NCBI GenBank assembly: GCA_947184155.2
Contig: CAMXCT020002083.1
Location: 28,501-92,500, forward strand
Reading direction: 5' to 3'
DNA length: 64,000 nt
Source: Cladocopium goreaui
Taxonomy: Eukaryota; Sar; Dinophyceae; Suessiales; Symbiodiniaceae
In this document: positions 27,437 to 32,903 of the stretch, piece by piece
Layout: each line of letters starts with the position of its first letter
Numbering within the stretch: the stretch's first letter is position 1
Translations under genes and position numbers: made by a program
The notes under the pieces: generated by a model
What the model was told of the DNA's origin: nothing
Databases searched by the model: none
The model's input: only the letters and a program-made list of their open reading frames with translations

Positions 27437-27850
27437 TTTCGTGACTCACCGCCGGCACCACCCTCGGCCTTAAGAGAGAAAGATAAAAAGAAGGCGTGAG
27501 AGAGAAAAAGGAGAGAGAAAGGAGAGAAGATGTGAAGGTGAGAAGATGTGAGAGAAGGTGTGAAAAGTTTGAGGCAAGAATGTGAAAAGAGGAAAGAGAT
27601 GTGAAAGTGAAAGCAGAAATGTGAAAGAAGAAGTGTGAAAGATGAGAGAAGATGTGAAGATGAGCAGATGTGAAGATGAGCAGATGTGAGAGAAGATGTG
27701 AAGATGAGCAGATGAGAGAAGATGTGAGAGAATGAGCAGATGTGAAGATGAGCAGATGTGAGAGAAGATGTGAGAGAAGATGTGAAGATGAGCAGATGTG
27801 AAGATGAGCAGATGTGAAGATGAGCAGATGTGAAGATGAGCAGATCTTCT
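27437..27850. repeat. Purine-rich tract with GATGTGAAGATGAGCA repeats
   Basis: The first part is GA-rich (GAGAGAAAGGAGAG). From about 27640 it becomes units of GATGTGAAGATGAGCA with deletions. This is the immediate 5' flank of the spliced-leader relicts and probably the target DNA of the retroelement insertion. Confidence 0.88.
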
Positions 27851-27933
27851 CCATTTTGGCTCAAGCCATTTTGGCTCAAGCCATTTTGGCTCAAGCCATT
27901 TTGGCTCAGGCCATTCTCGCTCAGGGGCTCAAG
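27851..27933 (+). repeat. Tandem relicts of the dinoflagellate spliced leader
   Basis: Three perfect copies of CCATTTTGGCTCAAG (27851-27865, 27866-27880, 27881-27895) are followed by one with a single change (27896-27910, ending CAGG), one with several (27911-27925, CCATTCTCGCTCAGG) and a stub GGCTCAAG (27926-27933). The 15-mer is exactly the dinoflagellate spliced leader after its internal CCGTAG. Re-splicing at that internal AG leaves 15-base relicts, so a stack is the trace of repeated trans-splicing and reinsertion. The innermost (oldest) copies are the most mutated. It sits directly upstream of the retroelement leader. Confidence 0.93.
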
Positions 27934-27935
27934 CC

Positions 27936-28345
27936 AACCCCTCCCCTGCCCCCTTCACCCACAACCCCCTGCGGTGACCCCCCCCCGGCTCGCGGCCCCG
28001 AGTGCGCCATCACTTTCAAGGCTGCCTCGGGCCCCAATCCCAAGCGAGGCGCGCCGCCCCCTTTTAAAGGCGCGCCCGCCCCGTACCCTTTTCGTTGTTC
28101 CCCCGAAGCTCCCATTTACCCCAACCCGGCTTTGAAAACCTTTTCACCTTCCCAACCCCTCCCCTGCCCCCTTCACCCACAACCCCCTGCGGTGACCCCC
28201 CCCCGGCTCGCGGCCCCGAGTGCGCCATCACTTTCAAGGCTGCCTCGGGCCCCAATCCCAAGCGAGGCGCGCCGCCCCCTTTAAAGGCGCGCCCGCCCCG
28301 TACCCTTTCGTCGCCCCTCGGAAGCCCCATTCCCACCTGCCCCCT
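27936..28345 (+). repeat. 218-bp duplicated leader units of the retroelement
   Basis: AACCCCTCCCCTGCCCCCTT begins at 27936 and again at 28154. Both copies run through CGGCTCGCGGCCCCGAG and AAGCGAGGCGCGCCGCC to the CCGCCCCGTACCC segment, with few differences until their 3' ends diverge. The duplicated region contains no ATG, which fits an untranslated leader or promoter monomer. Monomeric 5' repeats are known as promoters in some vertebrate L1 elements; a promoter role here is inference. Confidence 0.9.
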
Positions 28346-28401
28346 TGGCGGCTGACACCCTTTACCACCCCCCCCAACAGCCCCCCACCGGGGGACCGCA
28401 C

Positions 28402-28944
28402 ATGGCGCCACTGCAGCACCTTCCGCGCCCCCATCCCAACCGCAGTTGTTTCACCCGTTCCTTTTGCTACGCGGCCGCTGCAGTCACCCTGCTGTGTGCA
28501 GGCCACCCTTTCTGGGCACCCGCTTTAACCCCAGAGCGGTCCCCCGCGACTTCGGCCAGTGAGGTTCCTCGTCCCCTCAACCGTCACGCGCGCCGCGCGC
28601 TCACCTCCATCCTCAATGACGTCTGGGCACCCAGTCCCTCCCCCCGACCCCGCACCCGGCACCAAGCCCGCTGCCCCCGCCGCCACTGCCGACCCCACCG
28701 CCACGGCCACCGCCCCCCCCAACTTCCCGCCAGCTCCCAGGCAGCAACTGCGCCAGCCCACGATGGTCCGGGTGGCCGCTTCGCGCACACCGGGTCGGCG
28801 AAGCTGCCAACCCCGGCCCCCCTTCCCCACCACCCCCTGCCCCCGAACCCCACCCCACCCAACACACGTTCGCAGACACCATCCTGCTTAGCGATTCCGA
28901 CGAGGCCCCCGCACCTCCCCCAGGCCCCTGCGCAGTTTGCTTAG
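28402..28944 (+). CDS. First ATG frame of the retroelement (ORF1 N-terminal part)
   Basis: ATG 28402 is the first ATG I find after the spliced-leader site and sits in a GCACATGGCG context. The frame runs to a TAG at 28942-28944. Up to about 28640 it looks like real protein (MAPLQHLPRPHPNRSCF near the start and LNRHARRALTSILNDVW later). Beyond that it turns into Pro/Arg/His low complexity, while another frame takes over with conserved motifs. The likely explanation is that the true ORF1 starts here and shifts frame between about 28640 and 28740, where C-runs such as that at 28713-28720 invite indels. Function unknown. Confidence 0.5.
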   Translation: MAPLQHLPRPHPNRSCFTRSFCYAAAAVTLLCAGHPFWAPALTPERSPATSASEVPRPLNRHARRALTSILNDVWAPSPSPRPRTRHQARCPRRHCRPHRHGHRPPQLPASSQAATAPAHDGPGGRFAHTGSAKLPTPAPLPHHPLPPNPTPPNTRSQTPSCLAIPTRPPHLPQAPAQFA

Positions 28945-29792
28945 AGCCCTTTGCCCCTGCTTGCCCCCGACGCCGGCGACCCATCGCCTGGCCCACCTGC
29001 GGCCACTGCTACCATTTCTCATGCTTAGCAAGGCTCAGAGCACAAGTACAGCCCCCCCGCTGTGCTCAATGCAGGTCCCCGTGGCCTGAGGGCCCGGAAC
29101 ATGACGACACACTGTCACGCTTGTGCGGCACTGTTGGTGTGAACCCGTTCCGCGACTCCGAAGCGGAGACCCCCGGCCCCACCCCACCACCCACCCGCCC
29201 CGCTTGGCGCGACCGCGCGCCACCCACCGCGCCAATCACCGCCAGCACAAACTCCTGGCTCTACGTCCCCCTCCTCTGGGCCGCGGCCGGCCTCCAAACC
29301 CAAGCTGCCGCACAAGCCTGGCAAACCCAGTGCGGCGAGTGGTGGACCCTAGCCCGTGACACCCTCGCCGACGCCCCCCCAGTCGATTTGGAAGCTTTCC
29401 GCACGGCACTCAACCTTACCCCGTCCGCCGGAGCCGCCGAACAACTTGCCCGGCTCACCGCCGCCGGACCCTTTCCCGCCGGAGCCCATGCTTACCTGCG
29501 GTGGCTTCTCCAAATCCTGGCGGACGCGGACGGGTACATCCCGGCGGCTTCCCAAGAAACCTGCTTGCAACTTTATGGCGGGCTACCCTTCGCCGCTGCA
29601 CTCGACCGCCAAGCCAACCTCTTCCGCGCGCCGCCCACCCCCGACCCCGCACCCGCACCCGCCTTCACCACCGCCATCCCCTCACCTTCCATCCCCCCCA
29701 CCCCCACCGACCTGCCGAAGCACCCGCGGCCGCGGACGCGGCCGTGGCAATCGCCCTGCTTCCCCCCCACCCCTCCCCATGACCGATACTGA
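28620..29792 (+). CDS. Retroelement ORF1 with RING-H2 finger
   Basis: This frame is open from just after a TGA at 28617-28619 to the TGA at 29790-29792. It begins with a Pro-rich stretch, then HRVGEAANPGPP (NPGP codons 28809-28820), then LLSDSDEAPAPPPGP, then a RING finger. Zinc ligands by codon position are Cys 28929, Cys 28938, Cys 28998, His 29004, His 29013, Cys 29022, Cys 29061 and Cys 29070, matching the C-x2-C, C-x-H, H-x2-C, C-x2-C pattern of RING-H2 E3 ubiquitin ligases. About 220 residues of Ala-rich helical sequence follow (SWLYVPLLWAAAGLQTQAAA onward). No ATG precedes the RING in this frame, so it probably depends on the ATG at 28402 plus a frameshift, or on a sequencing error. 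The RING may recruit host factors or bind nucleic acid; ligase activity is inferred only from the fold. Confidence 0.78.
   Translation, partial: RLGTQSLPPTPHPAPSPLPPPPLPTPPPRPPPPPTSRQLPGSNCASPRWSGWPLRAHRVGEAANPGPPSPPPPAPEPHPTQHTFADTILLSDSDEAPAPPPGPCAVCLEPFAPACPRRRRPIAWPTCGHCYHFSCLARLRAQVQPPRCAQCRSPWPEGPEHDDTLSRLCGTVGVNPFRDSEAETPGPTPPPTRPAWRDRAPPTAPITASTNSWLYVPLLWAAAGLQTQAAAQAWQTQCGEWWTLARDTLADAPPVDLEAFRTALNLTPSAGAAEQLARLTAAGPFPAGAHAYLRWLLQILADADGYIPAASQETCLQLYGGLPFAAALDRQANLFRAPPTPDPAPAPAFTTAIPSPSIPPTPTDLPKHPRPRTRPWQSPCFPPTPPHDRY
28929..29072 (+). other. RING-H2 zinc-finger motif in ORF1
   Basis: The frame reads CAVCLEPF, a 13-residue Arg/Pro-rich loop, then CGHCYHFSCL, then RCAQCRSPWP. All eight ligands of a C3H2C3 RING are present, and the Pro after the last Cys pair is typical. 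It directly follows an acidic SDSDE patch. Confidence 0.85.
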
Positions 29793-32700
29793 GATCGACG
29801 CACCTACCCAGGCCCCCAGACCTGCACCACCCACAGGCCTATCTTGTCTTGACGCTGTTGATCTGTGCGCCACGCTCCGCATCCGCACCCCCACCTTCCA
29901 ATCAGTCCCCCGGCGGCTCCTGCCAACTTATAAACACGCCCTTCGCATGGCGCTTGACGCCATCAACTCCCCCACATCCAACCCTGTCGACACCGAACGC
30001 GGGTGGAAACTGTTCCTACTCGCTCCACGCCTCCTCCTGCACCGCCCCACCCACCAAACCCTTGCCACCCCTGAGGAACTTGACCGGCGGGCGGCCCTCT
30101 TCCGAACCGGCGAGTGGCTCCAACTCCTCCACGAGTCCTCACCCGCCCCACGCCGCACACACCCGACCCCCTCCCCCAACTCACCCACGGACAGCGCGCG
30201 AGCCCAACGGGCCATGACCCTGGTCCAACAAGGCGAGCTGTCTGCCGCCAGTGCCGCCCTCACCGCGTCCCCGCTGGCTCCCCTCACGCCAGCCACCCTG
30301 GCCGAACTTCGCCACCCCGACCGCCGCCCCCAACAACCCCAAGTCCCCATCGACCCCTACTTGCGAATGGGCTCGCCCTCGGATCCCCTGCACCTTGACA
30401 CTGCTCGCCTCCTCGCCAACTTGCGCACAGGCCGCCGCGGCGCTGCACCAGGCCCCTCCGGGATGACCACCGAACACTTGCGAGTGGTTCTAGACTCGGA
30501 CGAAACCACCCTCAAACTTACCGCTGCAGCCACCCGCCTTGCCACAGCGGCCCTCCCACCCAACATCCTCCTCGCCCTCCGCCTCGGACGCATGGTCGCC
30601 CTCCAAAAACCCAATGGCCGGGTCCGCGGGCTCGTCATGGGAGATGTGTTCCGCCGCCTTGTCGCCCGAACGCTCGCACAACAGTTCAGCCCCCAGTTCC
30701 AAACCGCTACTGCCCCCCACCAGTATGCGCTTGCCACACGGGCTGGAGGCGAAGCACTTGCACGGTCCGTGCGGGTTGCCACAGAGTTGCAACCAAACCT
30801 CACCGTCCTGTCCGTCGATGGCGTCGGCGCGTATGACCATATTGCGCGCCAGGCCATCCTTCAAGGCATCCACGGTGACCCGGGCCTCCGCCCCCTACTC
30901 CCATTTGTGAGGCAATTCTACGCGTCCCCTTCCGAGTACCTCTGGTATGATGCGGCTGGCACATGTCACCCCATCCACCAGCACGAAGGTGGCGAACAGG
31001 GGGACCCCCTCATGCCAGGCTTGTATGCGGTCGCAGTGGCGCCGGCCCTACAGGAAACCCACCGCGCACTCCTCCCCGGGGAAGCGCTCCTGGCATACCT
31101 GGACGATACTTACATCCTCTGCGCCCCTGAGCGCACGCGGGTCCTCTACGAACATCTGGAACAGGCACTCCGGCGCCACGCCAACGTCACGTTACACCAA
31201 GGCAAAACCCGCATGTGGAACGCTAGTGGTGCCTCCCCCACTGCCTGGCCACCCGCACCCCCTGACGCGCCGCCGCTCTGGGTTGGCGGTCCCGACACCC
31301 CGCCTGCAGAACAAGGCGTCACAGTGCTAGGTACCCCCATCGGAAGCCACGAGTACATCCTCGCCCATCTCCGTGCCACGCGCGCAAAACATGATGCACT
31401 CCTTACAGCCATCCCCACCCTCCCTTCCCTCCAAGCCAGTTTCCTGCTTCTGCTCTATTGTGCCAACCCCCGCCCAAACTACCTCTTACGCACCGTGCCA
31501 CCAGAGCAAACCCTTGAATACGCAGCCGCCCATGACGCTGCGATGGCCCGGTGCCTCGCAACATTGCTGGACCGGCCAGATGGCCTCCCCGCCACCAACC
31601 ATGCCCGCGCCCGCCTCAGCCTTGCCCATGGCGGCCTGGGCCTTCGGTCGGCCACCCACCATCGCCATGCGGCCTATTGGGCCAGCTGGGCTGACACCTT
31701 ACCCGCGGTACACGCACGATGGCCAGCAGTTGCCGATCAACTCGGCCAACTGCTAACAGGGGAGTCCCGAGCTCGCCCCCCGAGCGTCCAAGCTGCAGTT
31801 TCCGCCGCAGCTGAACTCCAACGTGCCGGCTTTACCCCCCCTCCCTGGGGCTTGCTCATCACCGGCAGCCCCCCGCCCCCAACCCCCCCGAACCCCTCAC
31901 GCGGCGACCCGCTGCGTGGATGGCAACGTGCCTCCGGGGCCGCGATCGACCAAGAAGATTTTGCAGCGCTTTTTACCACCCTGCCCGACCCCGAGCGCGC
32001 ACTTCTCCTGTCGCAAGCGGGCCCGCACGCCGCCACCACTTTCACCACCATCCCCACTTGCCCCGAGTTCCATTTCGACAACCCCCACTATCGCACCCTA
32101 CTCCTCCGACGGCTCCGCCTGCCGTTGGGGTTTGCCCCCGCTCGCTGTCGCTGCGGCCGCCCCTTAGACGCGTTCGGCGACCACCGCGCCGCATGCGCAA
32201 CTAGCGGGGCCTTGCGCACCCGAGCCGTGCCAATTGAAAGAACCTTGGCCCGCATCCTCCGCGAGGCCGGGGCTCGCGTGCACATGCACGTCCCCCTAGC
32301 CCACATGAACCTTGACCCGCCCCCCGCGGATGGACGCGCCATCGAAATCCTGGCACAAGGCCTCCCCCTTTGGCACGGCGCACAACTTGCGGTTGACGCA
32401 ACCCTTGTTAGCCCCGTTGGCCGGGATGGCGCGGCACACCCCCATGCTGCCACCACCCCCGCAACCGCCATCACCCAGGCTACGCGGCGCAAACGCATCT
32501 CGGTCTACCCTGAGTTTGCATCCCAACGCCGCTGCCGTCTTGTCGTTGTGGGGCTGGAAATCGGCGGGCGCTGGGGCATTGAGGCCCAGTCCCTTGTCCA
32601 CAGCCTCGCCGCGGCCAAGGCGCGAGCCACCCCCCCTGGCCTCCAAGCGGCCGCGGTTGGCGCTTACACACGCCGCTGGGCAGCTCTTTTGAGCTGCACA

Positions 32701-32841
32701 GCCCAGCGGGCCTTCAGCGCGAGCCTGCTGGAGCTACCCTTGGGCGCCACCGACCACACCGACGGCGACCCTCCCCCTTTTTTCGATCTCCTCGCCGAAG
32801 CGCGAGGAGACGACCCCCCCACCCCAGCCGCCTCCCTCTAA
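29779..32841 (+). CDS. Retroelement ORF2: reverse transcriptase and restriction-like endonuclease
   Basis: I chose ATG 29779 (MTDTEIDAP) because the same frame upstream is Pro/Ser noise, while ORF1 is coding there in another frame; it overlaps the ORF1 stop by 14 bases. The product is 1020 residues. RT motifs in order: GAAPGPSGM; KPNGRVRGLVMGDVFRRLV; motif A LSVDGVGAYDHI (Asp347, Asp353); motif B GGEQGDPLMPGLYA (Gln407); motif C AYLDDTYI (Asp442, Asp443); GKTRMWN; then VLGTPIGS. A zinc knuckle Cys790-x-Cys792-x9-His802-x3-Cys806 follows, then RAIEILAQG with Glu856 and LAVDATLVSP with Asp873, the PD-(D/E)xK pattern of restriction-like endonucleases. The end (KRISVYPEF, VGLEIGGRWGIE) is like the C-terminus of many protist RTs of this class. 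It nicks target DNA and reverse transcribes the element RNA in situ (family knowledge). No internal stops. Confidence 0.9.
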   Translation: MTDTEIDAPTQAPRPAPPTGLSCLDAVDLCATLRIRTPTFQSVPRRLLPTYKHALRMALDAINSPTSNPVDTERGWKLFLLAPRLLLHRPTHQTLATPEELDRRAALFRTGEWLQLLHESSPAPRRTHPTPSPNSPTDSARAQRAMTLVQQGELSAASAALTASPLAPLTPATLAELRHPDRRPQQPQVPIDPYLRMGSPSDPLHLDTARLLANLRTGRRGAAPGPSGMTTEHLRVVLDSDETTLKLTAAATRLATAALPPNILLALRLGRMVALQKPNGRVRGLVMGDVFRRLVARTLAQQFSPQFQTATAPHQYALATRAGGEALARSVRVATELQPNLTVLSVDGVGAYDHIARQAILQGIHGDPGLRPLLPFVRQFYASPSEYLWYDAAGTCHPIHQHEGGEQGDPLMPGLYAVAVAPALQETHRALLPGEALLAYLDDTYILCAPERTRVLYEHLEQALRRHANVTLHQGKTRMWNASGASPTAWPPAPPDAPPLWVGGPDTPPAEQGVTVLGTPIGSHEYILAHLRATRAKHDALLTAIPTLPSLQASFLLLLYCANPRPNYLLRTVPPEQTLEYAAAHDAAMARCLATLLDRPDGLPATNHARARLSLAHGGLGLRSATHHRHAAYWASWADTLPAVHARWPAVADQLGQLLTGESRARPPSVQAAVSAAAELQRAGFTPPPWGLLITGSPPPPTPPNPSRGDPLRGWQRASGAAIDQEDFAALFTTLPDPERALLLSQAGPHAATTFTTIPTCPEFHFDNPHYRTLLLRRLRLPLGFAPARCRCGRPLDAFGDHRAACATSGALRTRAVPIERTLARILREAGARVHMHVPLAHMNLDPPPADGRAIEILAQGLPLWHGAQLAVDATLVSPVGRDGAAHPHAATTPATAITQATRRKRISVYPEFASQRRCRLVVVGLEIGGRWGIEAQSLVHSLAAAKARATPPGLQAAAVGAYTRRWAALLSCTAQRAFSASLLELPLGATDHTDGDPPPFFDLLAEARGDDPPTPAASL

Positions 32842-32903
32842 GACAGGGGATCTGACCATGTGACCAATGGCGGTGAAAAAGGTGTCGCAGAAAGAAAAAA
32901 AAA
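32842..32903 (+). other. 3' tail of the retroelement with A-run
   Basis: After the TAA at 32839-32841 about 50 non-coding bases lead to AGAAAG and nine A residues (32895-32903). The strong GC bias ends here, marking the 3' border. An A-run fits a reverse-transcribed polyadenylated or A-rich 3' end. Confidence 0.55.

What the first reader, a model, noticed from the sequence alone, without database searches (positions are those of the whole stretch)
27851..27933. Stacked spliced-leader relicts at the 5' end of a retroelement, graded by age
Seen: three perfect 15-mers CCATTTTGGCTCAAG, then a 1-change copy, a multi-change copy and an 8-base stub, all head to tail and ending exactly where the GC-rich element begins. 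Established: the dinoflagellate spliced leader is CCGTAG followed by this 15-mer, and genes that went through mRNA-to-cDNA recycling carry 15-base relicts because re-splicing uses the AG inside the leader. Inference: the transcript of this retroelement has been trans-spliced and re-inserted at least five times. The decay gradient, worst at the inside, is what serial insertion predicts and what replication slippage does not. It suggests that an autonomous element uses host trans-splicing as part of its life cycle, and perhaps that this class of element powers the known recycling of host mRNAs.
Basis: partly seen in the sequence, partly recalled or inferred. Interest (0 to 1): 0.92.

Follow-up and report, generated by a model that had tools for sequence, protein, structure and literature searches.

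The report
Spliced-leader growth rings on jumping genes
A self-copying genetic element in a dinoflagellate carries, at its front end, several stacked remnants of the tag that the cell adds to its messages, which suggests that the element was copied from tagged messages again and again and keeps a rough record of its past jumps.

Summary
Confirmed to the base: 27851-27933 holds three perfect 15-mers, a 1-change copy, a 3-change copy and an 8-base stub, ending where an R2-like non-LTR retrotransposon (LINE) begins (27934-32903, A-rich tail). A 5'-end search of the window's 1.17-Gb genome found 9 loci of this family (a lower bound). The 8 that keep the 5' end (7 distinct insertions) all carry leader units; the ninth is 5'-truncated. 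The stacks share a decayed inner core but differ outside, beside unrelated flanks, and two hold non-leader DNA between units. Three copies differing at 10-16 of about 4745 body sites have three different stacks. Other LINE families agree: complete leaders sit outermost on two more R2-like copies and, exactly, at four insertions of an OTU-endonuclease-RT family. Of 27 loci with two perfect remnants in a row, 18 are LINEs, all in sense. This fits serial trans-splicing, reverse transcription and re-insertion, not a microsatellite or insertion into leader genes. Not shown: the number of cycles here (two units share a change; local duplication occurs elsewhere), any transcript, or that these elements drive host mRNA recycling. 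The mechanism is known for host mRNAs; I saw no report of it on LINEs in the capped open-access listings.

The parts
27646..27850 (+). Left flank: minisatellite (unit about GAGCAGATGTGAAGAT) ending GATCTTCT, host DNA of the insertion site; no CCGTAG before the stack
   Evidence: same left flank at the duplicate copy on C2011
27851..27865 (+). Leader unit 1 (outermost), perfect 15-mer
27866..27880 (+). Leader unit 2, perfect 15-mer
27881..27895 (+). Leader unit 3, perfect 15-mer (copy C on C209 also has one perfect unit here; copy B on C1112 has a 12-base truncated unit here)
27896..27910 (+). Leader unit 4, CCATTTTGGCTCAGG; within this family seen in A (and its duplicate A2), B and C only
27911..27925 (+). 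Leader unit 5, CCATTCTCGCTCAGG (same in B and C); a less changed form CCATTCTGGCTCA(A/G)G is in copies D, E and G: inherited core
27926..27933 (+). Innermost 8-base stub GGCTCAAG, present in all 8 family loci with the 5' boundary
27934..28370 (+). 5' region of the LINE with a direct repeat of about 218 bp (27934- and 28152-)
   Evidence: extra or shifted units in copies D and E
28930..29792 (+). N-terminal coding part with a RING-like Cys/His stretch, in another frame than the RT frame in this copy; limits approximate
   Evidence: RING-like Pfam matches (below cut-off) in the relative L020; reading in the window by eye
29356..32841 (+). Main open frame of 1161 codons (RT and C-terminal domains)
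   Evidence: homologues
30604..31332 (+). Reverse transcriptase RVT_1, E 8.7e-10; family profile's best solved-structure match is the R2 retrotransposon protein, E 3.5e-14
32146..32403 (+). Zinc-knuckle-like CxC..DH..C followed by a restriction-like-endonuclease-like D-x-R ... D pattern
   Evidence: by eye; no library match
32890..32903 (+). 3' end of the element: A-rich tail after GGTGTCGCA

Best explanation
The 83 bases are the growing 5' end of an R2-like LINE that passes through the host's spliced-leader trans-splicing in each jump. Cycle: (1) the copy is transcribed from outside; (2) the spliceosome joins the 22-nt leader to an AG at or near the element's 5' end, often the AG of the older leader copy's CCGTAG; (3) the element's RT copies this mRNA into a new site, from the A tail to a stop somewhere in the leader; (4) the new copy thus carries a complete or 5'-truncated leader. 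If CCGTAG was kept, the next splice removes 7 nt and adds 22, a net gain of one 15-mer. If it was lost, the next splice uses an upstream AG in the flank and captures a little host DNA, or uses a downstream AG and drops the outer units. Older units lie inside and tend to decay. Shown: stacks, differing outer parts with a shared inner core, variable truncation, non-leader bases between units, complete leaders at several junctions, A tails. Inferred: the RNA steps and their order, and the origin of the bases between units.
For: Window family: 7 distinct insertions with the 5' boundary, all with leader units; 180-base left flanks unrelated except A and its duplicate A2; outermost leader piece 15, 12, 12, 16, 16, 14 and 11 nt in A-G (the 16s include one base that may match by chance); shared core ...CCATTCT(G/C)GCTCA(A/G)G + GGCTCAAG + CCAACC, less clear in F; E has GCGGCAGCTAAAA and F has 5-8 non-leader bases (ATACA to ATACAAAA) between units. 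A, B and C differ at 10 of 4749, 16 of 4742 and 16 of 4744 body sites yet have three stacks (first 218-bp unit left out). 3' ends are A-rich at 6 of 6 loci. Other RLE copies: C1180 = flank + complete CCGTAGCCATTTTGGCTCAAG + CCATTTGGCTCAGG + further decayed unit; C338 = flank + complete leader + ATGTTTTGGCTCAAG; RLE-2, 3 of 4 distinct insertions with a recovered 5' end. OTU-EN-RT LINE: 16 of 18 five-prime ends (14 of 16 distinct insertions) carry leader sequence; four distinct insertions have the exact complete leader outermost; two alternative AG acceptors 8 nt apart. 18 of 27 double-relict loci are LINEs, all in sense. The 15-mer boundary at the leader's internal AG matches passages seen in PMC3229502.
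Against: No RNA evidence. Units 4 and 5 share A14G, and unit 4's form is private to A, B and C, so duplication or conversion between units may have played a part. L011 has GTGATTGGCTCAAG twice in tandem, which serial splicing does not give, and L073 has 7-base GCTCAAG three times. In L071 the outermost complete leader has a change while the next unit is perfect, against a strict gradient. The three perfect outer units of the window copy could include a slippage duplicate. L046/L051 (one insertion) and the truncated copies H and L072 lack leader; L075 is ambiguous. With the first 218-bp unit included, A, B and C differ more (A-B 29 of 4962, A-C 37 of 4954, B-C 24 of 4970), and the duplicate A2 differs from A at 67 of 4733 sites, nearly all in the first two elevenths of the alignment. 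A and A2 have different right flanks: a rearrangement or assembly fault in one. No target-site duplication was recognised by eye. Two more near-identical copies by protein (C4357, C5860:405487; 98%) start inside the protein and their 5' ends were not examined. A search for the CTCAGG variant, which could have tested a variant leader gene, did not complete.
Confidence: 0.9

Rival explanations
1. The stack is a 15-bp tandem repeat made by replication slippage or unequal exchange from one leader relict.
For: Tandem Repeats Finder calls it a 15-bp array; units 4 and 5 share a change; L011 shows a duplicated 14-mer and L073 a repeated 7-mer; L071 breaks the gradient.
Against: Copies at unrelated sites share the inner core but not the outer units; outermost units are cut at different leader positions exactly at the flank; non-leader DNA lies between units in E and F; complete CCGTAG + 15-mer sits outermost in other LINEs. 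The arrays stay short: three perfect units in a row occur only at the window and its duplicate among 27 double-relict loci.
Confidence: 0.06
2. The LINE inserts site-specifically into spliced-leader genes or relicts, as CRE, SLACS and NeSL elements do, so the leader is target DNA rather than part of the copied RNA.
For: The element resembles the restriction-like-endonuclease group in which leader-exon targeting is known (recalled; related papers seen in the listing).
Against: A mutated three-unit core is identical at three loci with unrelated flanks (A, B, C), so it travels with the element; no leader or SL-gene sequence is seen in the 3' flanks printed; truncated leaders abut unrelated flanks.
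Confidence: 0.03
3. The leader pieces come from template switching: at the 5' end of the element RNA the RT jumps to another leader-tagged mRNA or to SL RNA.
For: Chimaeras with other RNAs are reported for LINE-1 (PMC13174262, start of abstract in the listing); short foreign segments occur in E and F.
Against: The appended pieces are leader 3' ends joined at the leader's natural 3' end, without SL intron or body sequence of another mRNA, and the 15-mer step equals the distance between the two AG sites.
Confidence: 0.04

Closest known systems
Dinoflagellate mRNA recycling with relict spliced leaders (Slamovits and Keeling 2008, not seen; described in passages of PMC3229502, PMC7245778 and PMC12014239)
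   Same: Same 15-mer, same AG boundary, tandem relicts decaying inward, same proposed cycle of trans-splicing, reverse transcription and re-insertion.
   Different: Described there for genes in general, mostly from transcripts (5% of retrogenes with two or more relicts in PMC12014239). Here the relicts sit on autonomous LINEs, at many insertion sites of one family, so stacks can be compared between near-identical copies.
R2-like / restriction-like-endonuclease LINEs
   Same: RT closest to R2 among solved structures; CxC..DH..C and D..D patterns after the RT (by eye); A-rich 3' end.
   Different: Copies lie at unrelated sites; 5' ends are leader stacks; RING-like N-terminus; 218-bp repeat in the 5' region.
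CRE/SLACS/CZAR and NeSL, LINEs tied to spliced-leader genes (recalled)
   Same: RLE-type LINE, leader sequence at the 5' boundary, tandem repeats in the 5' region (as recalled for SLACS).
   Different: There the leader exon is the target; here it belongs to the copied RNA and travels with the element.
SymbioDIRS and SymbioLINE elements (PMC5890265, passages)
   Same: Dinoflagellate LINE and DIRS-like retrotransposons.
   Different: A find in that paper's main text gave 0 for 'spliced leader', 'splice leader' and 'DinoSL'.

Membership tests
Relict spliced leader (mRNA recycling) | Repeat unit equals leader nt 8-22 (15-mer ending AAG) | tested here: met
   leader sequence from PMC2606063 (abstract start in the listing) and PMC7245778 (passage)
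Relict spliced leader (mRNA recycling) | Complete CCGTAG + 15-mer outermost in some insertions | tested here: met
   Met in C1180, C338 and four distinct OTU-LINE insertions; not met in the window copy (15 nt) nor in any of the 7 window-family insertions
Relict spliced leader (mRNA recycling) | Inner units more decayed than outer ones | tested here: met
   Window 0,0,0,1,3 changes; same direction in C1180 and C338; exception L071; copies share inner units, so they are not independent tests
Relict spliced leader (mRNA recycling) | Transcript begins with a new leader joined to the relict | not testable with these tools
   no RNA data
R2-like RLE LINE | Reverse transcriptase of the R2 type | tested here: met
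   RVT_1 E 8.7e-10; R2 chains are the best 3 of 7 PDB matches, E 3.5e-14
R2-like RLE LINE | C-terminal zinc knuckle and restriction-like endonuclease | tested here: inconclusive
   Conserved CxC..DH..C and D-x-R..D seen by eye in 17 aligned proteins; no library match; structure prediction not run
R2-like RLE LINE | No LTRs, 3' A tail, 5' truncation | tested here: met
   A-rich 3' ends at 6 of 6 loci whose 3' end was recovered, two of them (window and C2011) copies of one insertion; one 5'-truncated copy
CRE/SLACS/NeSL (leader-gene-targeting LINEs) | Insertion into a spliced-leader exon | tested here: not met
   Leader core shared at unrelated flanks; no leader or SL gene in the 3' flanks printed
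15-bp minisatellite | Units independent of transcripts, arrays of many units | tested here: not met
   At most three perfect units; 18 of 27 double-unit loci lie in sense at LINE 5' ends

The most novel reading that the evidence does not exclude
In this dinoflagellate the spliced leader has become a general 5'-end device of retroelements. By carrying a leader copy with its AG, a LINE brings a ready trans-splice acceptor to any transcribed site and regenerates its complete 5' end without an internal promoter. LINEs of at least two endonuclease types (R2-like RLE, several families; APE-type, including an OTU-EN-RT family) do this, and tyrosine-recombinase-like elements hold the same 15-mer inside their direct repeats. 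The stack is then a generation counter with resets, and the same enzymes supply the activity behind host mRNA recycling.
Probability: 0.4. Interest if true: 0.87.

Novelty: new variant of a known kind. Interest (0 to 1): 0.7.

Why it matters
Which enzyme copies dinoflagellate mRNAs back into the genome is open; one review (PMC6050394, parts 1-2 of 3 seen) calls it unknown and leans to Ty1/copia. Leader-tagged LINEs are strong evidence that LINE machinery integrates trans-spliced mRNA in such a genome, and the share of LINEs among multi-relict loci makes the question testable. The stacks also give a heritable record of how often an element lineage has jumped, and suggest how a LINE can keep its 5' end without its own promoter. 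Counts of 'retrogenes' from relicts may need correction for retroelements.

Tried and rejected
Rejected: microsatellite slippage as the main cause, leader-gene targeting, and template switching (see rivals). A target-site duplication was looked for by eye at the printed junctions and not recognised. Rfam found nothing in the window at gathering thresholds. Viral contigs held neither the double relict nor a relative of the protein by the patterns used. Pfam and PDB searches of the paired-repeat element's proteins gave nothing useful, nor did a 16-member profile of one of them against PDB. RLE-2 windows L049 and L050 missed the element's 5' end and were dropped from the RLE-2 count; C4978 and C5890, also 54-55%, were not fetched. 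L052 missed the C1180 5' end, and L090 was fetched for it. In one search my anchor failed for L016 and L075; L016 was read, L075 stayed ambiguous. E's pairwise figures are inflated by sequence beyond its truncation and were not used. Paper searches were checked for LINEs with leader relicts by titles and abstract starts of the papers listed; several lists were capped (20 of 158, 25 of 34, 20 of 11,271, 10 of 179), and one search found no paper. Song 2017 is not held; Slamovits and Keeling 2008 is known here only through other papers.

Full report
What is there. The array at 27851-27933 is exactly as described: three perfect copies of leader bases 8-22, a copy with one change, a copy with three, and GGCTCAAG, directly before a GC-rich block. 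The block is a non-LTR retrotransposon: 1161-codon frame with RVT_1, 231 homologues at E <= 0.001 among the 8000 candidates scored (120 listed), R2 retrotransposon proteins as the best solved-structure match of a 17-sequence profile (E 3.5e-14), a conserved CxC..DH..C and D..D pattern behind the RT (by eye), and an A-rich 3' end at 32890-32903. The N-terminal part lies in another frame in this copy. The host is a dinoflagellate by its leader (inference); the assembly is unnamed (1.166 Gb, 6202 contigs).

Other copies of the family. A search with 567 bases of the 5' end gave 12 matches at 9 loci, a lower bound. One (C879:370510, H) begins 44 bases in and has no leader. The other 8 carry leader units at the 5' boundary; at C113 the search match itself starts at query base 222 and the boundary was read. 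The window (A) and C2011 (A2) share the left flank and most of the body and are counted as one insertion: they differ at 67 of 4733 sites, 65 of 68 in the first two elevenths of the fuller alignment, and in the right flank. That leaves 7, with unrelated 180-base left flanks. From the flank inward: A = 15, 15, 15, CAGG unit, 3-change unit, stub. B = 12-nt piece, CAGG unit, 3-change unit, stub. C = 12-nt piece, 15, CAGG unit, 3-change unit, stub. D = 15, CCATTCTGGCTCAAG, stub. E = 15, 15, 13 bases of other DNA, GGCTCAAG, CCATTCTGGCTCAGG, stub. F = 14, 5-8 bases of other DNA, (AAA)TTCTGGCTCAAG, GCTCAAG, stub. G = 11, 15, CCATTTGGCTCAAG, CCATTCTGGCTCAGG, stub. The inner core is shared, the outer part is private. 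A, B and C differ at 10 of 4749 (A-B), 16 of 4742 (A-C) and 16 of 4744 (B-C) sites without the first 218-bp unit, and at 29 of 4962, 37 of 4954 and 24 of 4970 with it.

Why this means serial insertion. Slippage in place cannot put the same mutated core next to unrelated flanks with different outer units, cut each outermost unit at a different leader position at the flank, or place foreign bases between units. A cycle of trans-splicing, reverse transcription with a variable 5' stop, and re-insertion does all three; captured bases would arise when a truncated leader has lost its AG and the next splice uses an AG in the flank (inference). Insertion into leader genes is excluded for this family by the travelling core. 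Limits: units 4 and 5 share A14G; a duplicated captured 14-mer in L011 and a repeated 7-mer in L073 show that other processes also act; L071 has a changed unit outside a perfect one; so the number of cycles of the window copy is only roughly known. The stub may come from splicing inside the leader rather than decay: PMC12014239 (passage) reports truncated CTCAAG relicts and suggests a non-canonical acceptor.

Other families. The RT protein search scored 44 of 1214 candidates (46 matches). Two of its loci coincide with complete leaders among the first 100 listed of 172 in the genome (control 0). C1180 (81% identical protein) has flank, complete leader, CCATTTGGCTCAGG, then a further decayed unit; C338 (41%) has flank, complete leader, ATGTTTTGGCTCAAG. 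In the RLE-2 family (about 55%), of 7 windows held (L020, L046-L051) 5 contain the 5' end, from 4 distinct insertions; 3 of these 4 have leader (outermost pieces of 16, 10 and 17 nt; two units in L020), and L046/L051 has none. An OTU-endonuclease-RT LINE (OTU and endonuclease at L011; RT downstream of L023) has 18 five-prime ends: 16 carry leader sequence, L072 is truncated, L075 ambiguous. Left flanks are identical in L009/L017 and in L018/L023, so 14 of 16 distinct insertions carry leader. Four have the exact complete leader outermost (L008, L009/L017, L011, L026) and L071 has it with one change. Two states of its 5' end...AAG|CCGCCCAG|GTTTG and ...AAG|GTTTG, look like use of two AG acceptors (inference).

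Genome-wide view. Two perfect units in a row occur at 29 places in 27 loci, 23 if near-identical duplicates are merged. 18 loci (15 of 23) are LINEs, in sense: 6 RLE, 2 with other LINE-like RT (L015, L021), 10 OTU-EN-RT, by protein match or by DNA identity of about 98% or more to such a copy. The other 9 (L001, L003, L005, L007, L012, L013, L014, L024, L025) are unassigned; L003/L012 share 30 residues at 60% identity with the RLE element of L020. For L001-L008 only 1.5 kb downstream was held. Single 15-mers look different: of the first 100 of 1191 listed, 44 form 22 same-strand pairs 6-10 kb apart, and 7 of 7 pairs examined lie in direct repeats of another kind of element. Of 12 unpaired ones sampled, 2 lie upstream of LINE protein matches (L081, L087), 4 resemble the paired-element repeats by eye (L078, L083, L084, L085) and 6 are unassigned. 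So LINEs are the main carriers of perfect double relicts, not of all 15-mers.

Comparison with what is known. The relict mechanism, its AG boundary and its inward decay are described (passages of PMC3229502; PMC7245778; PMC12014239). The 2018 review (PMC6050394, parts 1-2 of 3) says the responsible retroelement is unknown and favours Ty1/copia; it also reports that genes of 'RNA-dependent DNA replication' stood out in both retroposition episodes of Song 2017, which might already reflect leader-tagged RT genes (that paper is not held). PMC10235124 (passages) ties relicts near viral insertions to LINEs. None of the passages seen describes relicts on LINEs themselves, nor does any title or abstract start in the listings (one search found no paper); the library is open-access PMC and several listings were capped, so prior mention is not excluded. 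I rate this a new variant of a known kind.

Confidence. That LINEs of this genome were copied from leader-tagged mRNA: very high. That this copy's stack is mainly serial: about 0.9. That it records five or more jumps: moderate. That these LINEs power host mRNA recycling: open.

Noticed in passing
L053-L068 (G000 C2, C25, C37, C55, C184, C254, C278): Of the first 100 listed 15-mers, 44 form 22 adjacent same-strand pairs 6-10 kb apart. In 7 of 7 pairs examined (6 repeat families) both members sit inside 100-125 bp direct repeats that are 100% identical. The C184 element has an H-x-x-R..Y protein that looks like a tyrosine recombinase and an RT/RNase-H-like frame, by eye only (no Pfam or PDB support). 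The leader lies where an R region would be expected; in several repeats it lies in or beside a predicted hairpin.
   Followed up: partly
L004, L008, L011, L016, L070, L076: Several OTU-EN-RT LINE copies appear to be inserted at nearly the same place in related coding sequences (flanks such as ...CTGCCCCTGCTG), which suggests target preference (by eye).
   Followed up: no
window 27701-27850 and 32903 onward; L010: Window copy and C2011 copy share left flank and most of the body but have different right flanks (satellite at C2011, other DNA in the window): a rearrangement or assembly fault in one of them.
   Followed up: partly
window 27934-28370: The LINE's 5' region holds a direct repeat of about 218 bp, with extra or shifted units in other copies.
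   Followed up: no
window 28930-29800: The RING-like N-terminal coding part and the RT frame are in different frames in this copy, while relatives such as L020/P0003 have one long frame; whether by damage or recoding is open.
   Followed up: no
distinct LINE insertions: Of 26 distinct insertions with leader, 7 have an outermost piece of 15-16 nt (A, D, E, L020, L016, L022, L074), i.e. cDNA often seems to stop at about the CCGTAG boundary; a modified leader base could cause this.
   Followed up: no
G000 C191:445133-449931: Seven 15-mers 629-1263 bases apart on one strand, possibly a spliced-leader RNA gene array.
   Followed up: no
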